A DNA stretch of 31,919 nt from positions 1 to 31,919 of the forward strand of contig MFPR01000016.1 in assembly GCA_001784175.1 (NCBI GenBank). Reading direction: 5' to 3'. Both the position numbers and the translations under genes were made by a program. A model generated the notes under the pieces. It saw only the letters and a program-made list of their open reading frames with translations, had not been told where the DNA came from and searched no databases. Each line of letters begins with the position of its first letter. Positions within the stretch are counted from its first letter, which is position 1. This stretch comes from Candidatus Lindowbacteria bacterium RIFCSPLOWO2_12_FULL_62_27. Its GTDB lineage: Bacteria > Lindowbacteria > 2-12-FULL-62-27. This document shows, piece after piece, positions 15,483 to 31,904 of the stretch.

Positions 15483-18400
15483 ATGGCCCTAAACCCCCTC
15501 GCCTACACCGAGAAGGTCGTTCGCTCATTCCTCCGCTATCAACTCACGGCCTATCCGTTCGCGGATGAGCGGCTCAACCGGCAGATGCGGCGGCTGTTGT
15601 CGCTTGACACTGTCCGGCAGACGCCGCTCTTGAAAGGCCCCTATGTGAGCCTCTCGCGGGCGTTTCGGCCGGGCGCGGCGGTGGAACAACTGGTGTCGGA
15701 AGGCGTTCTGCATCCGCACATGCGGCAGATCATCCCGTTTCCGGCCGTGTTCGGCCATCAGGAGCAGGCCATCCGGGCCGTCTGTTCCGGCAAGACCACG
15801 CTGATTTCGACCGGCACGGGATCCGGCAAAAGCGAATGTTTTCTGTATCCCATCATCAGCCGGTGTCTCGAACTGCGGGATCAAAACGCGCCCTCCGGCG
15901 TCTCCGCCGTCATTGTCTATCCCATGAACGCGCTGGCCGAGGATCAGCTCGGCCGACTGCGCGATCTTCTGGCCGGAACCGGCATCCCGTTCGGGATGTA
16001 CATCGGCAAGACGCCGGACTACGAGTCGGAAGTGCGCGGACGGCGGCTCAACGCTGGATCGTCCCGCGCGGACTATCAGGCGGCGCTCAAGCAGTCCCGC
16101 GCGCGCGGCGAGGGCGCGGCGATCCATCCGGTGGAGGAGGTCTGCAGCCGCGAGAAGATGCGGGCGGCGGGCGGACAGCCCCGGATTCTGCTGACGAACG
16201 TCAAACAGCTCGAGCTTCTTTTGACCCGGCAGAGCGATGTGGAGCTGTTCGACCGCGCCCGGTTGGATTATCTGGTGTTTGACGAAGCCCACACGTTTAC
16301 CGGCGCCCAGGGAGCGGAGGCGGCGTGCTTGATCCGCCGTCTTCGAAGTTTTTGCGGGCGCAATCCAGAAGAGTCGGTTGCGGTCGCGACATCCGCCACG
16401 ATCGTGGACGCGGGGAATCCGGATGCCGCCCGGGACTTTGCGAGCCGTTTTTTCGGCGTCGCCAGAGAGGCCGTCGAAACCGTTCAGGAAATCTACGCCG
16501 ATGAGATGTGGGCCGCGCACCGGACGGTTCCGCCGGCGCCCGATCATCCGTCCGAACGATTGGCGGAAGTTTTGGCGGCAGTAGACGCGCCAGACCCGGA
16601 ACCGGCCGTCCGGCAGTCTTGGCGGAATTTGACGGGCACGGAATTGCCCGCCGGCGACTGGCAGGCGGTTTTGTATCAGGCGCTGGCCGGTAACGAACTT
16701 GTCTATCAAGTTTCAAAACTGCTTGAATTGCCCCGCGCGCTTGGCGACCTGTTGGGCGAACTCGAGGGCAAGATCGGCCGGGTGGTGACGGAGGAGGAAC
16801 TGATCGCGTGGCTGACCCTGGGCGCCGCGTCCCGTATGGACAATCGGCCGCTGGTTCGGCCGGTCTCGCACGGATATCTTCGCGGCGTTCCCGGAGCGGT
16901 GGTGACGTTCGATGAGAATCAAACGGATCCAGTTCTGCATTTGTCGGCTGAGGACGACCCCGGCGGCGGAGTTCCCAAATTGCGTCTGCGCGTGAGCACC
17001 TGCACCACCTGCGGCCAGCATTATTTCGAGCACGCGCTGGCCGATTTTGACTACACCGGCGACATACCCGGCGGCGGTCGCGCGGCCGGGGGAGCTGTTT
17101 ATTGGGAGCCGCTGGATGAATCGCGCGGCGGCATTCGCATGCTGTTGGTGGACCGGCTGATTTCGGAGGAAGACGGCGACGGGGATGATCATCCGCGGTT
17201 GACGGCTCTGTATTTTTGCCGCAAATGCGGCGCGGCCCATGCGGACGAAACCGAGCATTGCCTCGCCTGCGGCAAGGGCGGCCGCCCCGTCGCTCTCATG
17301 GCCGTGCAACAGCGGGATGGCCATCGCGGACAGCTTCGGACGTGCCTGAGCTGCGGCGCGGCGGGCCGGACGACGGCCGGAAGATTCCGTGAACCGGCCA
17401 GGCCGGTCCGGGCGACTCCCGTCGCGGACGTTCACGTTCTGGCGCAGGACATGGTCCATCACGCCGAGCGCAAGCGTCTGCTGGTTTTCGCGGACAACCG
17501 TCAGGATGCGGCCTTTCAGGCGGGCTGGATGCGCGACCATGCGCGGCGATTCCGCCTGCGCGCCATCATGGCGCAGGCCATCGCCGGCCGGCCGATGTCC
17601 GTTGGCGACCTGGCGCACACGCTGGACCAGATTCTGGAACAGGACGACGCGCTGTCCATGGCGCTTCTGCCCGAAGTGTGGGCCGTCGCGCCGAAGGAGA
17701 CCGGCGGGGCGGTTCATCGGGAGGAGCGAAAATATTTGCTTCGGATATTGATTCTTCTCGAGATCACCATGGGCGCGCGTCAGCAGGTGGGGCTTGAGCC
17801 GTGGGGGCGTCTTTCCGTTCGATATCTGGGATTGGACGCGGGCGCGGAATTTATTCAAACGTGGTCGAAACGGCTGGGATTTACTCCCGATGTTCTGTCC
17901 GAAGGCACGACCGCGCTGTTGGACGTCATCCGCCGGAAAAAAAATCTTCTGGACCGGACCGGCGACATCTTTTCGAAAATCTGGGGCGACGGCGATCGAG
18001 AATTGCAGAACGGGTATATGCCGGAACTTTCCGGCATTCCCAAAGGCCTGAAGCTAACCCGACAGGGACAGGACGACGACCGCTGGATCGACCAGTGGGT
18101 GTCCTCGTCCGGCCGGCAGACCCTGGCGAGCGAGATCGCGAAAAAATGGGGAGTGGCACCGGACCAGATCCAGACGTTCCTGACCGGGCTGTGGGATTAT
18201 CTGACGTCCGAGCCGGTCGGTCTTCTTGCGCCGGTCACGCTCAAAGGCCAGCGGGGAAATGCGCTGCCCCGCTGTCACGGCGCCCGGCAGATCGACGCGG
18301 ACAAACTGCTCCTGGCCGCCCACCGGGGCGTCTACCGGTGCCGCGCGTGCCGCCGCCGGACCGTGTCGCGGCCGCCGCTCGATCGCTGTCTGGCGTGGCG

Positions 18401-21400
18401 ATGCGACGGGCAATTGGAATTTGTTCAGGAAGATCCCGAGAATTACGACCTTCAGCTCATCGACCAGCAATACGCGATGCTTCGGCCCCGCGAACACACC
18501 GCCATGGTGCCGCAGGACGAGCGGGAGCATATTGAGCACATCTTCAAGGGCGAAAACGACGTGATCAACACGCTGGTCTGTACGCAGACGCTCGAGCTTG
18601 GCGTGGACATCGGCTCGCTCGATGCGGTGTTGATGAGAAACATGCCGCCCCGGCCGGCCAATTACTGGCAGCGCGCAGGCCGGGCTGGCCGCCGGCATCG
18701 GATGGCCGTGAATCTCGCCTACTGCCGGCCGGTCAGCCACGACCGGGCGTATTTTGCCGAGCCGGTGAAAATGCTCGGCGGACGCATCGATCCGCCCGCA
18801 TTTAATCTGTCCAACGATCTGATGATCGCCAAACATGTCCATGCGTCGATTTTGACCCGATTGCATCAGATGTCGCGCGAGGGGTTTGGACTTTCAGCGC
18901 CGGACCGGGAAGAGATCTTGGAGGCGCTGAAGACCGCGTTTCCGACGAGAATCTGCGATTACCTGTTTGACGAGCGTGGAGACGTGCGGCCGCGGCCGCG
19001 GGATGTTACCGCTCTGCACACGGTCATCACCAAACATCAGCAGGCCATCGAGCAGGCGGTGACCGCGGCGTTCCGGCAGGGCTGGCCGGCGGAGGATATG
19101 ACCGCCGTGTCACAGACCAAACTGGCCGGGCATGTGCTGAACATGACGGCCGAGTTGGAAGCCGTCGTCCAACGCCTCCATCGTCGGCTCCGATGGGCCA
19201 TGGATCAGATGGAAAAAATCGAGACGCTTAGGCGGCGGGTTGGCGTGCCGGACGAGGAACAGCAGGCATTTTATGACCGATGCCGCCGCCTGGTTAAAAA
19301 GCTGAAAGGCCGGGCGCCGCGCCGTCGGGCGCAGTCGGAAGGCGTGGACGACATCCTGACGTACGGTGTTCTGGCGGCGGAAGGATTTCTTCCCGGATAC
19401 GGGCTTGAAACGGGGTCCATCGTCGGGATGGCGGAGGTTCCGAAGTCGATTCGCGGCGCTCGGGATTTCGACCTGCCGCGACCGCCAACCATCGCCGTTC
19501 GGGAATATGTTCCGGGCAACCTGATCTACGCCAACGGTCAACGATTCGTGCCGAGGCGGTTCACGCGCGAGGTGGAGGAGGGGCAGGATCAGTCCATCGT
19601 GTTTGAAGTGAATCCGGCCCGGCAGGCCGTGCGGCAAACGACAACGGCTGCGACGGGGGATCCGTCGGCCGCGGTGATCCGAAGCATCCCGATTTCGGAC
19701 GCGACGCTTGTCCACGTGTCCCGGATTTCAGATGAGGAAGAGAACCGGTTCCAGATGGCCGTGACCCTGTTTATTCGAGAGCTCGATCAGCACAGCGGAG
19801 GCATGGCCTACCGGTGGGGTGAGAAGGAGATTCAGCTCCGGAAGGGCGTGCGGATGCAGATGGTCAATGTCGGCTCGGCGTCTCTCATCCGATCCCGGAA
19901 CCGGTATGGCTATCCGGTCTGTCTCGGATGCGGCCAGAGCGTGTCGCCGCTCTCCTCGGACGCCCAGATCGACGACTTCAGGCGAAAACATGAGGAGTGG
20001 TGCGGCATGCGGCCGGAGTCGATCGGATTTCACTGTGAAATGGCGGTGGACGCGCTGACGATTTCGGATTGTCAGGACTGGGAGGAGGCCTATTCCGTGG
20101 CCGAAGCCATCCGATTCGCCGCGGTGGAACTTCTGGACATGCACATCGAGGATCTTCAGGTGACGGTGATGGGCAAATACGATTCGGACCGGCCCAACGC
20201 CGTTTTGTACGACCCCATGCCGGGCGGGTCCGGACTCTTGGAGCAGATCTGCGCGCGGTTCGGCGAGATCGCGGCGGTAGCCCGGCGATTGGCCGAAACC
20301 TGTCCCTCCGTCTGTGATACGAGCTGTATCGATTGCTTTCAGACTTATAGAAACGCGTTTTATCACCGGTTTCTAAACCGTCATGCAATGTCGGACAGAT
20401 TCACGCGGTGGGGAGACAGCCTGTCGGACACGCGGCCGATTCCGCAGAGGCTTCCGGCGCAGGAACCGGCGGGGGCGGAACAGCCGGTCAACGAGGGCGA
20501 GCGAAAACTGCGGCGGATGCTGGCGGCGGCGAATTTTTCGGAGGGCCGGTGGCAAGAGAGCGTCTCTCTGCCAAGGCCGCTGAACTCGACCACGCCCGAC
20601 GTGACGTTCGCGCATCCGGACGAAGAGGACCGGAAAATATTCATCTACCTGGACGGACTGTCCGGCCATCTGCATGGCAATCCCGAGACGCGAGCGCGGG
20701 ACATCCAGATTCGCGCGGAACTGCGTGCGCAGGGGCATGACGTCCTCGAAATCACGCGGGTGGATTTAGATGACCGCGAGGCGATGACGCGGCATTTGAA
20801 GCGTTTGGCGCGGCTCTTGATCGGCCGGGATGCGGTGGATCGCGTGGCGGGCGAGGCGGATCAGTGGTTCGCGGCGCGGCAGGACCAGCCCGCCACTGCG
20901 CCGGTGGTTGTCCCGCCGCCGCCGGTTGATCTGTTGCCGTTCTACCGGGTTGACCCTCAGCCGCGGGACAGATGGACGACGGCTGTGCCGTTCATTGAAC
21001 TGGAAGTCGCGGCCGGGTGGTTTAGTGACGATCAGGTGGTCGATCACAAGCTGGAGGAGGCCGAACAGTGGGTGGCCCCTCACACGGATCGAAAGATCGC
21101 GGAGGGAATGTTCGTCGCGCGGGTCAAAGGCAAGTCCATGGAACCGCTGATCCCAGACGGCTCGTTTTGCCTGTTTCAGACGCACAAGGGCGGCGGCCGG
21201 GATGGCCGCATTGTCTTCGTCCAGCACCGAGACATCCACGACGCGGAATGGGGCGGAAATTACACGTTGAAACGCTATGCGAAAAGCATCAAGGAGACAT
21301 TCGACGACGAGACATGGCGGCACAAGGAAATCCATCTGGCGCCGATCAATCCGGATTACGAGACTATCATCCTCCGCGACGTGCGGGACGAGCATTTTGC

Positions 21401-21443
21401 GACGATCGCGGATTGGGTGGAAGTCTTGAGGCGGAGAGTGTGA
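15483..21443 (+). CDS. YprA/DruE-like SF2 helicase with DUF1998, Vsr-like region and S24 peptidase domain
   Basis: This 1986-residue protein is the likely core of the system. The SF2 ATPase has Walker A TGTGSGKS (K116), DEAH at 267-270, a SAT motif, motif V LELGVDIGSL, and motif VI QRAGRAGR at 1063-1070. Cys pairs at 507/510, 579/582 and 593/596 mark zinc-binding insertions between the lobes. The DUF1998/MZB module shows PGGSG at 1580-1584 and cysteines 1607, 1611, 1615 and 1618. Residues 1670-1800 resemble a Vsr/DUF559-type PD-(D/E)XK fold, with PD at 1705-1706 and YLDG at 1722-1725. Residues 1835-1986 match the LexA/UmuD S24 fold with GKSMEP (Ser1885) and TLKRY (Lys1930), so the Ser-Lys dyad is intact. 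Length and order recall Druantia DruE. Its TGA overlaps the next ATG by one base. The helicase and S24 calls are firm; the nuclease call is moderate. Confidence 0.9.
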   Translation: MALNPLAYTEKVVRSFLRYQLTAYPFADERLNRQMRRLLSLDTVRQTPLLKGPYVSLSRAFRPGAAVEQLVSEGVLHPHMRQIIPFPAVFGHQEQAIRAVCSGKTTLISTGTGSGKSECFLYPIISRCLELRDQNAPSGVSAVIVYPMNALAEDQLGRLRDLLAGTGIPFGMYIGKTPDYESEVRGRRLNAGSSRADYQAALKQSRARGEGAAIHPVEEVCSREKMRAAGGQPRILLTNVKQLELLLTRQSDVELFDRARLDYLVFDEAHTFTGAQGAEAACLIRRLRSFCGRNPEESVAVATSATIVDAGNPDAARDFASRFFGVAREAVETVQEIYADEMWAAHRTVPPAPDHPSERLAEVLAAVDAPDPEPAVRQSWRNLTGTELPAGDWQAVLYQALAGNELVYQVSKLLELPRALGDLLGELEGKIGRVVTEEELIAWLTLGAASRMDNRPLVRPVSHGYLRGVPGAVVTFDENQTDPVLHLSAEDDPGGGVPKLRLRVSTCTTCGQHYFEHALADFDYTGDIPGGGRAAGGAVYWEPLDESRGGIRMLLVDRLISEEDGDGDDHPRLTALYFCRKCGAAHADETEHCLACGKGGRPVALMAVQQRDGHRGQLRTCLSCGAAGRTTAGRFREPARPVRATPVADVHVLAQDMVHHAERKRLLVFADNRQDAAFQAGWMRDHARRFRLRAIMAQAIAGRPMSVGDLAHTLDQILEQDDALSMALLPEVWAVAPKETGGAVHREERKYLLRILILLEITMGARQQVGLEPWGRLSVRYLGLDAGAEFIQTWSKRLGFTPDVLSEGTTALLDVIRRKKNLLDRTGDIFSKIWGDGDRELQNGYMPELSGIPKGLKLTRQGQDDDRWIDQWVSSSGRQTLASEIAKKWGVAPDQIQTFLTGLWDYLTSEPVGLLAPVTLKGQRGNALPRCHGARQIDADKLLLAAHRGVYRCRACRRRTVSRPPLDRCLAWRCDGQLEFVQEDPENYDLQLIDQQYAMLRPREHTAMVPQDEREHIEHIFKGENDVINTLVCTQTLELGVDIGSLDAVLMRNMPPRPANYWQRAGRAGRRHRMAVNLAYCRPVSHDRAYFAEPVKMLGGRIDPPAFNLSNDLMIAKHVHASILTRLHQMSREGFGLSAPDREEILEALKTAFPTRICDYLFDERGDVRPRPRDVTALHTVITKHQQAIEQAVTAAFRQGWPAEDMTAVSQTKLAGHVLNMTAELEAVVQRLHRRLRWAMDQMEKIETLRRRVGVPDEEQQAFYDRCRRLVKKLKGRAPRRRAQSEGVDDILTYGVLAAEGFLPGYGLETGSIVGMAEVPKSIRGARDFDLPRPPTIAVREYVPGNLIYANGQRFVPRRFTREVEEGQDQSIVFEVNPARQAVRQTTTAATGDPSAAVIRSIPISDATLVHVSRISDEEENRFQMAVTLFIRELDQHSGGMAYRWGEKEIQLRKGVRMQMVNVGSASLIRSRNRYGYPVCLGCGQSVSPLSSDAQIDDFRRKHEEWCGMRPESIGFHCEMAVDALTISDCQDWEEAYSVAEAIRFAAVELLDMHIEDLQVTVMGKYDSDRPNAVLYDPMPGGSGLLEQICARFGEIAAVARRLAETCPSVCDTSCIDCFQTYRNAFYHRFLNRHAMSDRFTRWGDSLSDTRPIPQRLPAQEPAGAEQPVNEGERKLRRMLAAANFSEGRWQESVSLPRPLNSTTPDVTFAHPDEEDRKIFIYLDGLSGHLHGNPETRARDIQIRAELRAQGHDVLEITRVDLDDREAMTRHLKRLARLLIGRDAVDRVAGEADQWFAARQDQPATAPVVVPPPPVDLLPFYRVDPQPRDRWTTAVPFIELEVAAGWFSDDQVVDHKLEEAEQWVAPHTDRKIAEGMFVARVKGKSMEPLIPDGSFCLFQTHKGGGRDGRIVFVQHRDIHDAEWGGNYTLKRYAKSIKETFDDETWRHKEIHLAPINPDYETIILRDVRDEHFATIADWVEVLRRRV

Positions 21444-22750: not shown

Positions 22751-24541
22751 ATGTTTGACGAGGCACTTTGGGCCGGCGCGCATGCGACGCGGAATTTTGT
22801 CCTGAACGATCCTGTCCTGGACTGGCTAAACCTTTACGGCGAGCAAAAAGGATTTATCAGGGATACCGGGCTGCCGGGGTACGATCCGCGTACGGACATG
22901 TCCGCGTTTCTGTTCAAGAAAGGCATTGAATTCGAACAGGCTGTGATTGGGCACCTTAAAACGCGGGCGGCTGTGGTCACCATTGCGGTTGAGCCGGGGC
23001 AAATACGTGATCCGCAGATGGCCGAACAGACAGTGGATGCCATGGCGCGGGGCGCTCCGATTATCTACAAGGGGGTGCTGCATGACGATCGGCATCAAAC
23101 GTATGGCAGTCCGGACCTGATGGTGAGAAGTAATATTTTACATGAGTTGTTTCCCGCCGCGTTGTCAGCGGGAGACGCCGCCGTTTCCGCGCCGGCGGTG
23201 AAGGGCGGGTCATTTCATTACAGAATTGTCGATATCAAGTTCACGACTCTTGATCTGCTGGTCAGCGGCGAACTCGGCAACTCCGATTCCGGACCCGCTT
23301 ATAAGGCTCAACTGTTCATCTACAATCGCGCCCTGGCGCAGATTCAGGGGTACCTCCCGCCTGTCTCCTATCTCCTGGGCCGGGGCTGGAAGCAGACCAT
23401 CAAGGGTGAGACTCGCAGGGGAGTCAACGCGATGGAACTGCTTGCGCCCGTTTCGCAGACCGGCATGGTCAGCAGGGAAAAAACAATTGCCGCCGTCGTC
23501 GACGCCGCTTGCGATTGGGTCCGGCGGGTCCGATCGGACGGCATGAACTGGACTGTCTGCCCTCATCCGTCCGTGCCGGAACTACGACCCAATATGGGAA
23601 ATAAAGAGGACGCGCCATGGGCTGAGGCGAAGAAGGCTATCGTCGATGAGCTGGATGACCTGACGGTTCTATGGCAGGTGGGAGCGGGAAAACGCGACGC
23701 GGCCTGCCGACAGGGGATTCGTTCCTGGAGAGACAAGAGATGCACAGCCGAGGCCGTCGGCATCACCGGCGCCAAGCAGCAGCCGATCTTGCAGGCCATT
23801 CTCGATATCAACCAGAGAGAGGACGGCCCGACGCTCTCACCCGATCGTGTCACCGCCTGCCGCGAAATATGGGGCCCGGATCCCCCGCTGGAATTTTTCG
23901 TCGATTTCGAAACGGTCACCGACCTGAACGACGATTTCTCCGATTTCCCCCGCCGCGGCGGCCAGCCCATGATTTTCATGATCGGGTGCGGCCATATGGA
24001 AAACGATGCATGGACATTCAAATGTTTTACCGCAACTTCGCTGACGCCGTCGGCCGAAGCCGTCATCATCGACGACTGGATCGACCACATGGGGCAAATC
24101 CGTTTGAAGACCGGCAACGGCATTGAACGACCGGTGGTTTACCATTGGTCTCACGCCGAAACCACAAATCTCTCTACCGCCTATAACGCCTCAGTCCAGC
24201 GCCATCCGGACAAGGCCGGCAAATGGTCCTCCCCACACTGGTTTGATTTTCTCAAAGAGGTCATGAGAGCGGAGCCGGTCGTGGTCCGGGGCGCGCTGGG
24301 GTTCGGCCTGAAAATGATCGCCCGCGCCATGCACCGGCACGGACTGATACAAACCCTCTGGGGGGAAGGCTCCATGGACGGCCTGGGCGCCATGGTCGGC
24401 GCCTGGTGGTGTTGCGAAGAGGCTGCGAAAAATGGGCTCCGGTCATGCGATATCAGCCTGATGAAAGAGATCGAGCATTACAACGAAATCGACTGCAGAG
24501 TCATGATGGAAATCGTCCACCACTTGAGAAAGAATCACTGA
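22751..24541 (+). CDS. RecB-like nuclease fused to YprB-type RNase H exonuclease domain
   Basis: This 596-residue protein resembles the TM0106/DUF2779 group. The N-terminal half has a Cas4/RecB-type PD-(D/E)XK core: GSPDLM with D122, DIK at 161-163, and the downstream YKAQ with Q187. From about 380 there is an RNase H-like exonuclease fold of the RNase_H_2/YprB kind, with DFE at 385-387 and YNEID at 577-581 giving a DEDDy-like signature. Both active sites look intact. A very strong Shine-Dalgarno (GGAGGTGGAGG, 22731-22741) precedes the ATG by nine bases. In Bacillus subtilis the DUF1998 helicase YprA (MrfA) acts with the exonuclease YprB (MrfB), so finding this domain near a YprA-like helicase suggests partners. 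That link is inference. Confidence 0.85.
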   Translation: MFDEALWAGAHATRNFVLNDPVLDWLNLYGEQKGFIRDTGLPGYDPRTDMSAFLFKKGIEFEQAVIGHLKTRAAVVTIAVEPGQIRDPQMAEQTVDAMARGAPIIYKGVLHDDRHQTYGSPDLMVRSNILHELFPAALSAGDAAVSAPAVKGGSFHYRIVDIKFTTLDLLVSGELGNSDSGPAYKAQLFIYNRALAQIQGYLPPVSYLLGRGWKQTIKGETRRGVNAMELLAPVSQTGMVSREKTIAAVVDAACDWVRRVRSDGMNWTVCPHPSVPELRPNMGNKEDAPWAEAKKAIVDELDDLTVLWQVGAGKRDAACRQGIRSWRDKRCTAEAVGITGAKQQPILQAILDINQREDGPTLSPDRVTACREIWGPDPPLEFFVDFETVTDLNDDFSDFPRRGGQPMIFMIGCGHMENDAWTFKCFTATSLTPSAEAVIIDDWIDHMGQIRLKTGNGIERPVVYHWSHAETTNLSTAYNASVQRHPDKAGKWSSPHWFDFLKEVMRAEPVVVRGALGFGLKMIARAMHRHGLIQTLWGEGSMDGLGAMVGAWWCCEEAAKNGLRSCDISLMKEIEHYNEIDCRVMMEIVHHLRKNH

Positions 24542-26324: not shown

Positions 26325-29300
26325 TCAGGTTAATCTTAAGAGGAGATCCACAATCGCCGGTTCGCTATTGAATACGTCTCTCGCGCTCACTCGCACAACT
26401 TTGTATCCGGTCGCCTCGATTCGTTTGTCCCGGACGTTGTCGGACCGGATCTGTTCCGGGCTGTTGTGCTGTTTGCCGTCGACTTCGAGGTCGTAACGGG
26501 TTCCGAAGGGGGAGACGACGAGGAAATCGAGTTCGTCGCGGCCTTCTTTGAAGTGATGGTGAAACCAGAGTCCGGCCTTGCGAAGAAGCTCTGCCATGCG
26601 GGATTCGGAGGTTTCGCGGATGTCTGCCTCTGAGTGTCCGGCAACGTGGCCGGAAGACACGTAATCTGCGAATTCACCGATATACCCGCCCGCGTTTTTG
26701 CAGGCTTCCAGATTGCCGATGACATGAAGGGCGGCGCGGGCGCGGGTGACGGCGACATTGAGGAGCTGATCGGTTTTGGCGACCCAGCCGGCGGTCTTTT
26801 CACGGATGCCGTCGGAAATGACGGGGGAAAAAATCATGAGGTCGCACTCATCGCCCTGAAACTGGTGCGCGGTGCCGACAGTCAGCCGGCCTTTCACCTC
26901 TTCCCACCACGGTTGTTTTTGAACGGCTTCGCCCAGCTTTTCCATCTGGGCGCGAAACGGAGTGACGATGCCGAATGTCAGATCGCGGTTGGCCAAGAGT
27001 CCGGCTCCGTGCCAGAGATTCAAAAGATGGATTGCCGCCTCGATCTCGTCTTTGTTCCATGCGCCGCGTGATGTTTCCGGCACACGGCCTTTCACGTCGT
27101 GCCAGAACACACCCAGTTTCTGACCATCCACCTTTTTTTCCAGAGCAGAGACAGCGGTTCGGAGAACAAGCCGGCCCTGATAGAAGACCCGGTTGGAGAA
27201 TTCGATGACGTCGGGATGAGAGCGGTAGTGTTCCGCGAGAAAAATCGGGGGATTGTCGCGCCCAACCACCGCGGCCGCAGCGACATCATACAGAGAACAG
27301 CGGACAAACGACCAGTCCGTCAGAAGATCTTCCGCGCCCTGTTGGTGCGCCAGGTACTCTTCCCGCTGATAGCGGATCGCGCTGATATGGCGAAGCTGGT
27401 TGGGATCGCCGATGATGAGCGCGCGTTTGGCGCGAAAGAGAAGCGGGATTGCGGACGGAATATCGCACTGGCTGGCCTCGTCAATGATGACCAGATCAAA
27501 CAGGGCAGGCTCAAGCGGCATGGACCTCCGAACCGATAGATTCGTGACAATCCAGACGGGCAGAAACGGGCCGAGAGATTTGATCGTTCTGCTGAAGTCC
27601 TCCATCAGCCGCCTCGCCTGCGGGCTGTTGCCGCTTCTCGGCCGGCTGGATAGATCGAAAAACCGGCGGGCGCACTGATGGGCGACATCCCATTTGGCCC
27701 GGATCCTGCCGGTCCACTCCATCCTCAGAAAATCCCGGGACCGCGTTGATTTTTCGTGCTTCAGTTTTTGCCATTTCTGGAGAAGGCTATTCGCGGTGGG
27801 CAAAGATCCAAGTTTTTTCAGCATTAGCCGATATGTGTTCCGGGCGTTCACCCAGGATGCGTAATCGCTGAGTTTCTGAAACGCATCCGCCAGCGTGGAA
27901 AATGTCACGTCCGCTCGAACGTCGCGTAGAATCGCATCCTGAACCGCGGCGGGTAACGGGCGCGCGCATTCAGTCAGACGTTCTGTCAGCTCTCGAAGGA
28001 GGCGTTTTCTTGCGAATAGCCGCCGAATCCACAGGATAAATCCCATCAGGCCGCGGCCGGCCAGAGCGCGGGATTCGGTGACACCACGGCGTAAAGGTTC
28101 TTCCGGAATAGCCGGAAGATTTGAAAGGTCGGTCGAATCAGTCCATTCAGGAGGAACCGTTTCGGCGGCTTTGGACATTTTTTCCACGGCCGCTTGAACC
28201 TGCTCACGCATCTCACCCAACTGTTTCATTTCCTGTCGCACGGTCTGCAGTTTCTCGTCAATGCCCTTGAGTACGGCCGTGGCGTCCAGGTCGGACGTGA
28301 CATTCGGACGAGTGCCGATACTGGACAGCCGCCGGAGCATGTCTGCGGAAGTTTCCTCCATTTTGGCTTTGCTTCCCAACCGCAGTGTCCAGTCATCCTC
28401 TTCGAGGATCGCGTTCAGGCGCTCGTGGACCACGTCGACGGCCTTGTTGTTCTTGCTCGCAAACAGAACCGCTTTGCCCGCGGCGGCACAGCTCGCGAGA
28501 AGATTCACAACGACCTGGGACTTGCCGGTGCCCGGCGGGCCGGTGACGACAGTGATCGGTTTCGTGAGACCCGCCAAGGCCGCCAGTTCCTGTTGGTCAT
28601 TCAGGGGCAGAACTTCCAGAACGGGGACGGACGACTCCGTCATGGGGGGCGCCGCATGTGATTGACCCGGGGCCAGAATCGGCGCAAGCGCGGTGCCCAT
28701 CACATTCTTGAGGAGGTCATCCCGGCCGAGGAGTTCATCCATTTCTTTTTTGAGATTGTACGTGAACAAGTTTCGCTCACTGCGGAACAGGATCGGCTTG
28801 TTGACCCATCGCGATTCCACCGCGCCTCCATCGGGCAGAGGCTCCAGACGGTCATGCCGGAATGGCTGAGGGTCGACCCGCAAATGATCGAGCGCCGCGC
28901 GAAGCCGCGCCTCGAACGATCCGAAGAGGCCTTCGAGTTCGGAGAGAATAGCCGGCAGTTGTTCCGACAGATGACCGTGGGATAGAAGGACATGATGGTT
29001 GACCATCACAGCGTTGGGATCCACCGGCCGCATCGTGCAGGCGCCGCCGGAACCGACCACAAGTTCCACTTCAAGCATGAACAGCGGCGTCACAAAATCC
29101 CGGGCATCGAGGAAAATGGGATAGCCGTAGAAAAATCTCTCGGCAGGTCCCGCGCGCGCGGCCCCGCGCGTGACAAATGAGAGTTCGCCGGTGTCCACCT
29201 GAAATCGGACTTCGGGCGAGCCCGGATGCAACAAGGGTTCGGACCTTTTCCATGGAGAGATGAACGACTGGCCGTACTGCGCCCGCTCGAGCTTGAGGGC

Positions 29301-30506
29301 ATGCTTGTCCTCCTCTTCGATACAGGACTGATAAAATCGGAGCAGTCGTGCGAAGTCGGACTCGCCGCAGTCACGCCGGCCTGTCGGCTCTGCTGATTCA
29401 ACCCTTTGACGGGGGCGCCCGCCTGCTCCTGAATCAGCGACCCGTTCCAAGTCGGATTTCAACTCTTTCATGTTGCGGTATCGATCGGCCGGGTTTTTCT
29501 TGAGACAGGATTGAACGAGTTCCGCCAGCGGTGGCGGGACGTCCGGGCTGAAAGAGCGCAGATCCGGCGCCGGGGTTTCGAGAATGGAGTGGTACAGCCT
29601 GTCCAACGTTTCCTCTTCAAAAGGAACTCTCAATGCGAGGAGTTCATAGAGGACGACTCCAAGGGCGTAAACATCCGTCTGCTCGCCTATTTCTTTTTTG
29701 CGAATCATCTCAGGGCTGATGTAATACGGCGTACCAAGGACTTCGCTTGTCCGGGTGCGGACGGAACTTTCCGCCAGTTTGCTGATTCCGAAGTCCATGA
29801 GTTTGATCATGCCGTGCGTATCGTAGAGGATGTTTTGAGGCTTAACGTCACGGTGAATGACCCGCGCGCGGTGGGCGGCATCGAGGCCATCGCAGGCCTG
29901 TCGGGCGATATTGACGACGGCGTTGATGTAGTCGGCGTCCAGGATGGTGCGGACGCGGTTTTTAGGCGGCAAGTCGGCCATTCGGCCTGTCGCGACGTCG
30001 AATACATCGGAAGCGCGGGAAAATCTATTCTCCTTGATGTGTCGGACAACCTTGTCCAGCGTCAGGCCTTCGAGATATTGCATGACGTAGTAATAGAATT
30101 CGTCGGTTTCACCGTGAGAGTAGATGACCACGATGTTCGGATGTGTGAATTTGGCGAGTATCTTACTTTCTTGCTGAAATCGTTTGAGTACTTGCTCGTT
30201 GTCCATCTTCGGAATCACTTTGACCGCGACCTGCCGGTCAAGGGACGTGTCGTGGGCCAGATAGACTTTCCCCATGCCATGCCCCAGAAGACGGGTGATG
30301 TTCAGGTTCGGTATTTTTATGGAATCGGAGTCACCTGCTTTCCCGCCTCGCGCTTTTCGGAACATGTCTTCAACTTTTTGGTATTTCTTCACTTTCTCGA
30401 GGAAATGCGGATCCCCGTCATAGGGGGACTTTGAGAGGTCCGGCTCGCGCCCTTCCTGTATTTCGTCCAGGTATTTCAGGAAAAGATCTCCGGTATCAGC
30501 CTTCAT
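26325..30506 (-). CDS. Ser/Thr kinase - SF1 helicase - Vsr-like nuclease fusion (Mokosh MkoA-like)
   Basis: The 1393-residue protein joins three enzymes. Residues 70-350 are a Hanks-type kinase: Lys96 in VAVK, Glu113 in helix C, HRD with D220, DFG with D238, then GTPYYISPE. The glycine loop (LLGHGMGKV) is one residue shorter than usual. From about 640 to 1290 lies a COG1112-type SF1 helicase with Walker A GPPGTGKS (K662), DEASQ from D1009, then AEHYRS and NVAVTRAR. The last 100 residues match the Vsr/DUF559 nuclease fold, with LDF, LEVDGKQH (E1341, D1343) and a GYKVVRV strand. A kinase joined to a COG1112 helicase is the MkoA layout of Mokosh type I as I recall it, where the nuclease is a separate PLD protein. 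The start overlaps the sigma-factor gene by 11 bases. Confidence 0.9.
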   Translation of the reverse strand: MKADTGDLFLKYLDEIQEGREPDLSKSPYDGDPHFLEKVKKYQKVEDMFRKARGGKAGDSDSIKIPNLNITRLLGHGMGKVYLAHDTSLDRQVAVKVIPKMDNEQVLKRFQQESKILAKFTHPNIVVIYSHGETDEFYYYVMQYLEGLTLDKVVRHIKENRFSRASDVFDVATGRMADLPPKNRVRTILDADYINAVVNIARQACDGLDAAHRARVIHRDVKPQNILYDTHGMIKLMDFGISKLAESSVRTRTSEVLGTPYYISPEMIRKKEIGEQTDVYALGVVLYELLALRVPFEEETLDRLYHSILETPAPDLRSFSPDVPPPLAELVQSCLKKNPADRYRNMKELKSDLERVADSGAGGRPRQRVESAEPTGRRDCGESDFARLLRFYQSCIEEEDKHALKLERAQYGQSFISPWKRSEPLLHPGSPEVRFQVDTGELSFVTRGAARAGPAERFFYGYPIFLDARDFVTPLFMLEVELVVGSGGACTMRPVDPNAVMVNHHVLLSHGHLSEQLPAILSELEGLFGSFEARLRAALDHLRVDPQPFRHDRLEPLPDGGAVESRWVNKPILFRSERNLFTYNLKKEMDELLGRDDLLKNVMGTALAPILAPGQSHAAPPMTESSVPVLEVLPLNDQQELAALAGLTKPITVVTGPPGTGKSQVVVNLLASCAAAGKAVLFASKNNKAVDVVHERLNAILEEDDWTLRLGSKAKMEETSADMLRRLSSIGTRPNVTSDLDATAVLKGIDEKLQTVRQEMKQLGEMREQVQAAVEKMSKAAETVPPEWTDSTDLSNLPAIPEEPLRRGVTESRALAGRGLMGFILWIRRLFARKRLLRELTERLTECARPLPAAVQDAILRDVRADVTFSTLADAFQKLSDYASWVNARNTYRLMLKKLGSLPTANSLLQKWQKLKHEKSTRSRDFLRMEWTGRIRAKWDVAHQCARRFFDLSSRPRSGNSPQARRLMEDFSRTIKSLGPFLPVWIVTNLSVRRSMPLEPALFDLVIIDEASQCDIPSAIPLLFRAKRALIIGDPNQLRHISAIRYQREEYLAHQQGAEDLLTDWSFVRCSLYDVAAAAVVGRDNPPIFLAEHYRSHPDVIEFSNRVFYQGRLVLRTAVSALEKKVDGQKLGVFWHDVKGRVPETSRGAWNKDEIEAAIHLLNLWHGAGLLANRDLTFGIVTPFRAQMEKLGEAVQKQPWWEEVKGRLTVGTAHQFQGDECDLMIFSPVISDGIREKTAGWVAKTDQLLNVAVTRARAALHVIGNLEACKNAGGYIGEFADYVSSGHVAGHSEADIRETSESRMAELLRKAGLWFHHHFKEGRDELDFLVVSPFGTRYDLEVDGKQHNSPEQIRSDNVRDKRIEATGYKVVRVSARDVFNSEPAIVDLLLRLT

Positions 30507-31116
30507 CCGGCACCAGCTTGGTCAGTTTTTCCATGATCCGATTGTGCCGCATCCGCATGCCGTCTTCCGTCTTGCCCCGTTTATGTGCCATCTCATTGAA
30601 GGAAAATCCGTAGATGTCACGCTCAATCACGATTTCGCGTTCCTCTTCGGTTAATTGGTCCAGAATAGATTCCAACAAAATCTGGTCGTCCCACTTCTTG
30701 TCCGGAGACGTCCGTTTCCCCTGATCCGCAGCTACGGCCAACCCGCCGCCGGTTGTATCCATGCGTATTTGCCGGCTGATCCGGCGCCGGTCAGCGTTGT
30801 GGTACTTGATTTGGTCGGCAATCTGGGTTTTGACGATGCTGTACAGCCAGGCAATGAATTCTCCTTCGCTTGGAAAGACTTTGGGCCGGCCATCGTTCTG
30901 TGCATTCTGTACCGACTTGAGAGCCTTCTCCATGGAATCCTGGACGATATCCATGGATTCCATTTTGCTCCGAAGTTTCTGACCCATGCGAATCCTGGCC
31001 AGGCGATGGATTTTCTCCTGATACTTCTCGAGAAGCGCGTGGATGGCGCCGATGTCACCGGCGCTCGCAGCGTGCAACAGGCGAAGTGTTTCGGAAAAGA
31101 GGCTTTTGGTGACCAT
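30496..31116 (-). CDS. ECF-type RNA polymerase sigma factor
   Basis: This 206-residue protein has region 2 at about residues 25-105 (MDIVQDSMEKAL, GEFIAWLYSIVKTQIADQIKY) and region 4 at about 150-205, with a helix-turn-helix in FSFNEMAHKRGKTEDGMRMRHNRIMEKL. The short chain with only regions 2 and 4 indicates the ECF group. The layout resembles sigma factors encoded beside Ser/Thr kinases, some of which are activated by phosphorylation and not released from an anti-sigma. No anti-sigma gene is next to it, and the kinase gene overlaps its end by 11 bases. Its likely target is the promoter of this same block, but that is inference. The Shine-Dalgarno is weak. Confidence 0.87.
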   Translation of the reverse strand: MVTKSLFSETLRLLHAASAGDIGAIHALLEKYQEKIHRLARIRMGQKLRSKMESMDIVQDSMEKALKSVQNAQNDGRPKVFPSEGEFIAWLYSIVKTQIADQIKYHNADRRRISRQIRMDTTGGGLAVAADQGKRTSPDKKWDDQILLESILDQLTEEEREIVIERDIYGFSFNEMAHKRGKTEDGMRMRHNRIMEKLTKLVPDEG

Positions 31117-31151: not shown

Positions 31152-31904
31152 CTACCGGGATTTACTGATCTCGACCGGCACGATCAGGACGGTCATATTG
31201 TCGGACGAACCCTTGCTATTAGCCTGCTCGATGATCCGCTGTGCGGCCTTGTTTGGATCATCGCAAGATCGAAGCAAATGGTCCATTTCCGGAATATCCA
31301 CCGCGTCGCAGACTCCGTCAGTGGTCAGGATCACATAACGGTCATGCGGTGACAGAATGTAACTTCCGATGTCCGGCATTGCATGCAGACCGACTTCACG
31401 CATCGTCCGATCGCCAAAAGCCCGAGTCGGCATGAGTCCCATCCCTTTGTGGAGATAATATGGATCCTGCACAGAAGCGCCGGCGCTTGTGACACGGGCC
31501 CTTTCGGTTGGATGGTCAATCCGATGGGACGGTGTCAGGCGGTACGTCGATTCTGAACCAGCGAGAAACACCGCGCAATCTCCGGCGTTGGCGTAAACCA
31601 TCGTCTTGCAGTTAATGAATGCGGTGGCCGCGGTTGATCCACAATCGTATTCCCACGTTTCTCGTTCGGCGGCGCGGTAGGCCATTTTCATGGCAGTTTC
31701 GTAATCGCCGGTCTGATCCAGCGCGTAGAAGAATTCAGTCGAAACTGTGTGGACAAGGACGTCCGCGACGTCCGATCCCCCATGACCATCATAAACTCCG
31801 AGAAAAATGCCCACCCCCTTCTTTTCCCGAACGCTGAACCTGTCTTCCATTGTTTTCCGGTTTCCGAGATGTTGACGAACCTGAACCCGGCTGTGCTGTT
31901 GCAT
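31152..31904 (-). CDS. PP2C-type Ser/Thr protein phosphatase
   Basis: The 250-residue protein carries all the usual PP2C metal-binding motifs: MED at 19-21, VYDGHGG with D39, the GSTA box, NAGDC, TRAFGD, TTDG with D196, and GSSDNMT with D235. It has no membrane segment, so it is a cytoplasmic catalytic domain that would remove phosphate from Ser/Thr. The ATG is preceded by GAGGAGG at the window edge. It heads the leftward block, 35 bases before the sigma factor, and is the natural opponent of the kinase domain two genes downstream. Its catalytic identity is very sure; its substrates are inference. Confidence 0.93.
   Translation of the reverse strand: MQQHSRVQVRQHLGNRKTMEDRFSVREKKGVGIFLGVYDGHGGSDVADVLVHTVSTEFFYALDQTGDYETAMKMAYRAAERETWEYDCGSTAATAFINCKTMVYANAGDCAVFLAGSESTYRLTPSHRIDHPTERARVTSAGASVQDPYYLHKGMGLMPTRAFGDRTMREVGLHAMPDIGSYILSPHDRYVILTTDGVCDAVDIPEMDHLLRSCDDPNKAAQRIIEQANSKGSSDNMTVLIVPVEISKSR

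What the first reader, a model, noticed from the sequence alone, without database searches (positions are those of the whole stretch)
26325..30506. Mokosh-like kinase-helicase with the nuclease fused in cis and of a different fold
As I recall it, Mokosh type I encodes a kinase-COG1112 helicase plus a separate PLD protein, and type II fuses helicase and PLD. Here kinase, helicase and a Vsr/DUF559-like nuclease are one protein and no PLD gene is adjacent, suggesting a nuclease swap and possibly a new subtype.
Basis: partly seen in the sequence, partly recalled or inferred. Interest (0 to 1): 0.8.

Follow-up and report, generated by a model that had tools for sequence, protein, structure and literature searches.

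The report
Kinase-helicase-nuclease with its own sigma factor
Two related uncultured bacteria carry one protein that joins a signalling kinase, a helicase and a DNA-cutting domain, next to a transcription (sigma) factor and a phosphatase; it resembles the Mokosh anti-phage system but arose separately, when a copied signalling trio was joined to a helicase-nuclease that exists elsewhere without a kinase.

Summary
The 1393-aa kinase-helicase-Vsr protein is real, on the minus strand at 26325-30506, with no PLD gene beside it. A second Lindowbacteria genome carries it at 66% identity, so it is not an assembly artefact. It is not a Mokosh subtype. The helicase nests (100/99 support) with kinase-free helicase-Vsr proteins from Clostridia and Eremiobacterota. 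Mokosh MkoA proteins form their own clade, and uniting the two is rejected (AU p = 6e-36). The kinase is sister to a sigma-linked kinase-TPR protein in the same genome (99/100). The two share a ~30-residue insert seen in no other kinase measured. Both sit in a trio: PP2C phosphatase, ECF-type sigma factor, and kinase overlapping the sigma gene by exactly 11 nt. So a PP2C-sigma-kinase signalling trio was apparently duplicated and fused to a helicase-nuclease; no nuclease was swapped on a Mokosh scaffold. The MkoA HMM hit (1e-88) is a sum of generic kinase and generic helicase scores: a true MkoA scores 920 bits, this 297. Most likely it is a defence helicase-nuclease, beside an ARMADA-like system, whose motor gates a kinase that acts on its sigma factor and on itself, with PP2C as the reset. 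Mechanism and anti-phage activity are untested.

The parts
26325..30506 (-). Kinase-helicase-Vsr fusion protein, 1393 aa
   Evidence: ORF; Pfam; 66% identical orthologue in G002
30297..30506 (-). N-terminal extension (res. 1-70), homologous to that of the C43 sigma-linked kinase (LFLKYL..x..G..PD)
   Evidence: own-genome match from residue 4; sequences side by side
29466..30296 (-). Ser/Thr kinase domain (res. 71-347)
   Evidence: Pfam Pkinase 2.4e-51; kinase tree
29937..30038 (-). About 30-residue insert in the kinase (res. ~157-190), shared only with the C43 paralogue and the G002 orthologue
   Evidence: K-to-HRD spacing 121/122/121 against 87-93 in the other kinases measured
28617..29381 (-). 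Conserved pre-helicase region (res. 376-630), start of the kinase-free helicase-Vsr relatives; fold unknown
   Evidence: alignments A2 and A4; structure prediction failed, pLDDT 38.8
26709..28604 (-). UPF1/SEN1-like SF1 helicase (AAA_11/AAA_12, COG1112 type), res. 635-1266
   Evidence: Pfam; PDB profile matches SEN1, UPF1, IGHMBP2; tree
26349..26606 (-). Vsr/DUF559-type PD-(D/E)xK nuclease, res. 1301-1386
   Evidence: Pfam; motif conservation; model and Foldseek
30496..31116 (-). ECF-type sigma factor, 206 aa, overlapping the kinase gene by 11 nt
   Evidence: Pfam Sigma70_r2/r4, TIGR02984 below cut-off; overlap
31152..31904 (-). PP2C Ser/Thr phosphatase, 250 aa; contig ends 15 bases upstream
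   Evidence: Pfam PP2C 2.9e-32; 76% identical partner in G002

Best explanation
Identity (well supported): a three-gene cassette, PP2C - ECF-type sigma - [sigma-linked kinase + helicase + Vsr nuclease], made when a host signalling trio was duplicated and its kinase fused to the front of a stand-alone COG1112 helicase-Vsr protein. Mechanism (inferred): the SF1 helicase loads on foreign or aberrant nucleic acid and positions the Vsr nuclease to cut it. Helicase engagement also switches on the fused kinase. The kinase phosphorylates itself and its partner sigma factor, which then transcribes the cassette and possibly other defence genes; PP2C removes the phosphates and holds the system silent when there is no threat. 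Shown: architecture, intact catalytic motifs, linkage of the three genes in two genomes, separate origins of kinase and helicase. Inferred: direction of signalling, sigma as substrate, nucleic-acid target, anti-phage role.
For: Same three genes, same order and same 11-nt sigma/kinase overlap in two genomes. The paralogous C43 trio has the same overlap, 48% identical sigma, 38% identical PP2C and a sister kinase fused to TPR instead. An FHA (phospho-Thr reader) gene directly precedes that sigma. Helicase-Vsr exists without a kinase in Clostridia, beside BrxC/D- and SngC/BrxHI-like defence genes, and in Eremiobacterota. Other relatives carry caspase, WYL or wHTH-like modules at the same N-terminal position, so that slot is modular. 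The window cassette lies next to an ARMADA-like system. It is not syntenic in G002, so it behaves as accessory DNA. Precedents from papers: kinase activates its linked ECF sigma factor (PknS-EcfK, PMC13147305); kinase with PP2C-type antagonist in phage defence (KKP, PMC11341870).
Against: No functional data of any kind. The sigma is not shown to be ECF43-like: it keeps acidic residues in the region-2.2 motif (ESMDIVQD) where ECF43 members lose them, so activation by phosphorylation at that site is not predicted. The kinase Gly loop is one residue short. Only two genomes carry the fusion. No sigma-dependent promoter was sought or found, because the window's contig ends at the operon's 5' side.
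Confidence: 0.5

Rival explanations
1. Mokosh type I variant in which the separate PLD nuclease was replaced by a Vsr domain fused in cis.
For: Domain order kinase-then-COG1112 helicase as in MkoA; PADLOC MkoA E=1.1e-88; some rhizobial Mokosh I loci also carry a PP2C downstream.
Against: Helicase clade with MkoA rejected, dlnL 102.7, AU p=6e-36; kinases with MkoA kinases rejected, p=0.0015; true MkoA 919.8 bits in one stretch against 296.8 in three here; the C43 kinase-TPR with no helicase already scores 115.7 bits on MkoA; no MkoB/PLD gene adjacent.
Confidence: 0.04
2. Kinase and PP2C act only in cis, as a phospho-switch on the helicase-nuclease (as one would guess for MkoA and its PP2C); the sigma factor is an inherited passenger or only an autoregulator.
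For: The kinase is covalently attached; PP2C is next to genuine MkoA-MkoB in Aminobacter and Sinorhizobium without any sigma gene listed there.
Against: The sigma gene is kept at 72% identity, about as well as the PP2C, with the exact 11-nt overlap in both genomes and in the paralogous trio.
Confidence: 0.3
3. The kinase is the effector: a growth-stopping toxin kinase (Stk2, KKP, PD-T4-6 style) triggered by the helicase, with PP2C as antitoxin.
For: KKP precedent; PD-T4-6 and mad6 kinase HMMs match.
Against: Those HMMs match the C43 housekeeping-like kinase equally well, so they say only 'Hanks kinase'; an intact nuclease domain would be superfluous.
Confidence: 0.08
4. Not defence: a DNA/RNA damage or stress-response protein of the lineage.
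For: The paralogous trio is not in a defence setting; relatives include UPF1/SEN1-type RNA helicases.
Against: Patchy presence, absent from G001; non-syntenic in two genomes; next to an ARMADA-like cassette; relatives lie in defence neighbourhoods or are best matched by Mokosh, ProA and Hhe models.
Confidence: 0.1

Closest known systems
Kinase-free helicase-Vsr proteins (Clostridia DUSP01000037, locus L022; Eremiobacterota PLLF01000004, locus L020); NCBIfam ProA and Hhe are the nearest named models with this helicase+nuclease pair
   Same: Helicase and Vsr nuclease align end to end with residues ~385-1393 at 51% and 41% identity; the ProA model alignment spans helicase and nuclease
   Different: No kinase and, where the neighbours can be read (L022), no sigma or PP2C; ProA/Hhe scores are far below their cut-offs and DUF4011 proteins form a separate clade
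Mokosh type I (MkoA + MkoB)
   Same: N-terminal Hanks kinase followed by a COG1112-type SF1 helicase; some loci also have PP2C
   Different: Separate clades for both helicase and kinase; PLD partner gene instead of a fused Vsr; no sigma gene listed beside it in the loci viewed
Mokosh type II (MkoC)
   Same: Helicase and nuclease in one protein
   Different: PLD, not Vsr (definition in PMC11672841); MkoC-model references L139/L140 are a separate clade
Kinase-linked ECF sigma systems (ECF43: EcfP-PknT, EcfK-PknS)
   Same: Sigma gene adjacent to a Hanks kinase that is its likely activator
   Different: Kinase fused to a helicase-nuclease instead of a sensory domain; sigma keeps acidic region-2.2 residues; PP2C in the operon
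KKP kinase-kinase-phosphatase phage defence (PMC11341870)
   Same: Kinase and opposing phosphatase in a predicted defence cassette
   Different: KKP has two stand-alone kinases and no helicase, nuclease or sigma factor

Membership tests
Mokosh type I | Kinase-helicase protein orthologous to MkoA | tested here: not met
   Helicase AU p=6e-36, kinase AU p=0.0015 against joining MkoA; HMM 297 bits in 3 pieces against 920 in one for a true MkoA
Mokosh type I | Separate PLD-family protein (MkoB) in the operon | tested here: not met
   None on the G002 contig on either side nor downstream in the window; PLDc_2 hits lie on other contigs. The window's upstream side ends at the contig edge
Mokosh type I | Kinase domain followed by COG1112-type helicase | tested here: met
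   Pfam
Mokosh type II | Helicase fused to a C-terminal PLD nuclease | tested here: not met
   C-terminus is Vsr/DUF559 type
Hhe / DUF4011-type helicases | DUF4011 N-terminal region and clustering with DUF4011 helicases | tested here: not met
   No DUF4011 match; separate clade; Hhe model 85.6 bits against cut-off 2000
Helicase-Vsr clade (this report) | Pre-helicase region, helicase and Vsr domain aligned throughout; helicase clade | tested here: met
   (100/99)
Lindowbacteria PP2C-sigma-kinase trio (this report) | PP2C, sigma, kinase linked; 11-nt sigma/kinase overlap; ~30-residue kinase insert; kinase clade | tested here: met
ECF43-type phospho-activated sigma | Loss of acidic residues and conserved Thr in region 2.2 | tested here: not met
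   Motif reads ESMDIVQD / DSMDIVQE / DSMDIVQD against the description in PMC13147305
Anti-phage defence system | Protection against phage | not testable with these tools
   Needs an experiment

The most novel reading that the evidence does not exclude
A defence helicase-nuclease wired directly to transcription initiation: nucleic-acid sensing by the motor switches its fused kinase, which activates a dedicated sigma factor, so one protein both cuts the invader and turns on a defence regulon, with PP2C as the off-switch.
Probability: 0.3. Interest if true: 0.82.

Novelty: new variant of a known kind. Interest (0 to 1): 0.56.

Why it matters
It shows by phylogeny that kinase-helicase defence proteins arose at least twice, so 'kinase + COG1112 helicase' is not a mark of Mokosh. 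The MkoA profile scores this protein at 1e-88 and could lead to a wrong label where no whole-protein cut-off is applied. If the sigma link is functional it would be a direct route from nucleic-acid sensing to transcription in a bacterial defence system, testable with three genes. It also places caspase, WYL, wHTH-like and kinase modules at the same N-terminal slot of one helicase lineage, which suggests that the slot carries sensing or signalling.

Tried and rejected
Mokosh subtype: rejected by both trees and by HMM controls. Grouping with DUF4011/DUF3320 helicases: not supported. Assembly artefact: rejected by the orthologue in G002. Prophage or viral origin: viral-contig scans gave only distant helicases; one contig (L099) has a helicase-Vsr protein followed by a truncated kinase-like reading frame. 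Fold of the pre-helicase region: model unusable, pLDDT 38.8. Calling the Leptolinea/Brevefilum C-termini PLD: only an HDRF motif; Pfam and PADLOC did not confirm it, so 'PLD swapped for Vsr between sister clades' is left open. MkoC reference rows were chosen by PADLOC score; their PLD parts were not found in the ORFs used. Literature: no paper describing kinase-helicase-Vsr with a sigma factor was found; a search for planctomycete ECF-kinase papers returned none. The sigma search in 386 genomes used a strict cut-off (1e-15) and found only Lindowbacteria, so wider occurrence of such trios is untested.
Full report
WHAT IS THERE. The coordinates 26325-30506 hold one open frame of 1393 codons on the minus strand; the plus strand of the same stretch is full of stops. 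Pfam finds a Ser/Thr kinase (71-347), an SF1 helicase (AAA_11/AAA_12, 635-1266) and a MTES_1575/DUF559 nuclease (1301-1386). Upstream on the same strand lie an ECF-type sigma factor (30496-31116) and a PP2C phosphatase (31152-31904). The window is the whole of contig C16 and ends 15 bases before the PP2C start codon, so nothing further upstream can be read in this genome. The nuclease model (pLDDT 80.6) matches 3hrl (E 4.2e-4) and the Vsr-like homing endonuclease I-Bth0305I (1.1e-3). Its D, E-x-D-G, D..R and G.xVxR residues are kept across six aligned relatives, with the H of ExDGxxH altered in one of them.

IT IS REAL AND REPEATED. Of the three genomes held for the phylum, one other (G002; its contig equals JAHFCY010000032.1, Candidatus Lindowbacteria) has the same three genes in the same order: kinase-helicase-Vsr 66% identical over full length, sigma 72%, PP2C 76%. 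That 19.4-kb contig shows both flanks: ordinary chromosomal genes upstream; a HATPase_c_4-HTH gene, an unassigned gene and a Fic gene downstream; no PLD. PLDc_2 and MkoB searches of the three genomes hit only other contigs. The TPR lipoprotein gene next to the cassette in G002 has its G000 counterpart on contig C33 without any cassette, so the cassette sits in unrelated places in the two genomes.

THE HELICASE IS NOT MOKOSH. Genome-wide scanning found full-length relatives of residues ~380-1393 that lack any kinase: L022 (Clostridia, 51%), L020 (Eremiobacterota, 41%) and a partial WOR-3 copy (56%). I took genuine Mokosh I proteins as references: Allocoleopsis WP_015186147, followed by the PLD protein WP_015186146, scores 919.8 bits on MkoA in one stretch, with nine further rows (L121-L129). 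In a 46-row helicase tree the ten MkoA rows are one clade (98/94). The two Lindowbacteria proteins join L022, then L020, at 100/98 and 100/99. Forcing them into a clade with MkoA costs 102.7 log units, AU p=6e-36. NCBIfam agrees: the MkoA reference scores 285 bits on the IGHMBP2-helicase model and 47 on ProA; this protein scores 106 and 145, the latter alignment running through the Vsr domain. DUF4011 proteins form another clade.

THE KINASE HAS ITS OWN SOURCE. In the same genome, contig C43 carries FHA, sigma and kinase-TPR genes with a PP2C about 4 kb away on the other strand. That kinase is 46% identical, and the similarity includes the N-terminal extension before the kinase domain. In a 33-row kinase tree, including 22 other Lindowbacteria kinases and 7 MkoA kinases, it is sister to the window kinase at 99/100; joining the window kinases to the MkoA ones is rejected, p=0.0015. 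The spacing from the VAVK lysine to HRD is 121-122 residues in these three kinases and 87-93 in the other kinases where it could be measured, MkoA included (one further row gave a meaningless negative value because the lysine pattern matched elsewhere). Sigma stop and kinase start overlap by exactly 11 nt in all three copies. The simplest history is duplication of a PP2C-sigma-kinase trio and fusion of its kinase to a stand-alone helicase-Vsr gene. The trees do not give direction by themselves, but kinase-free helicase-Vsr proteins in other phyla and a helicase-free trio in the same genome make fusion the economical reading.

WHY THE MOKOSH LABEL TEMPTS. PADLOC's MkoA profile gives E=1.1e-88, but in three pieces. 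The profile's kinase part hits well over a dozen other places in this genome with about 110-136 bits, the same as this kinase (131 bits), and gives 115.7 bits for the C43 kinase that has no helicase. The score is a sum of two generic domains.

FUNCTION. The cassette lies beside an ARMADA-like system: RmuC, DrmD/BrxHII-like helicase, MTase, UvrD-like and YprA-like genes at 946-21443 (ARMADA described in PMC12458937). Relatives lie among defence-type genes (L022: BrxC/D-like ATPases, SngC/BrxHI-like helicase, Mrr_N) or carry a caspase (L028), WYL (L025, L029) or wHTH-like (L099, L176, read by eye) module at the N-terminus. Together with patchy distribution this makes anti-invader function likely but unproven. 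For the kinase I infer two targets, the sigma factor and the protein itself, with PP2C as antagonist. Precedents are PknS-EcfK (PMC13147305) and KKP (PMC11341870). Two genuine Mokosh I loci in rhizobia also carry a PP2C gene after the MkoB-position gene, which suggests that kinase-helicase defence proteins have acquired a phosphatase partner independently. Against a simple ECF43-type model, this sigma keeps acidic residues in region 2.2 (ESMDIVQD).

NOVELTY. Helicase-Vsr proteins, kinase-helicase proteins and kinase-sigma pairs are each known. Their union with PP2C in one cassette was not found in the papers or models searched, which is a limited search. I rate it a new variant of a known kind.

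Noticed in passing
946-21443 (+): ARMADA-like defence cassette: RmuC, DrmD/BrxHII-like helicase, Eco57I-type MTase, UvrD-like helicase with TPR matches, YprA/DruE-like helicase. Gene order puts the UvrD-like gene before the YprA-like gene, unlike the order described for ARMADA type II in PMC12458937.
   Followed up: partly
15483-21443 (+): The YprA/DruE-like helicase (1986 aa, MZB/DUF1998) ends in a Peptidase S24 (LexA-like) domain (PF00717, 1.3e-9), preceded by what reads by eye as a Vsr-like stretch; the S24 fusion is not mentioned in the ARMADA paper text searched.
   Followed up: partly
L122 and L124 (Aminobacter, Sinorhizobium plasmids): Genuine Mokosh type I loci carry a PP2C phosphatase gene directly after the MkoB-position gene, a possible unrecognised third component.
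   Followed up: no
L028 5960-9754: Streptacidiphilus relative fuses a caspase (Peptidase_C14) to the same helicase family.
   Followed up: no
L099 1844-5612 (IMG/VR contig): Helicase-Vsr gene followed by an overlapping, truncated kinase N-lobe: perhaps a decayed separate kinase partner.
   Followed up: partly
L163 8337-9608 (G002 C308): A PP2C 62% identical to the window's stands alone, followed by a CHAT-like protease remnant (read by eye), with no sigma or kinase nearby.
   Followed up: no
22751-24541 (+): 596-aa protein with a weak TM0106-type RecB-like nuclease match (NCBIfam 0.005), end of the ARMADA-side genes.
   Followed up: no
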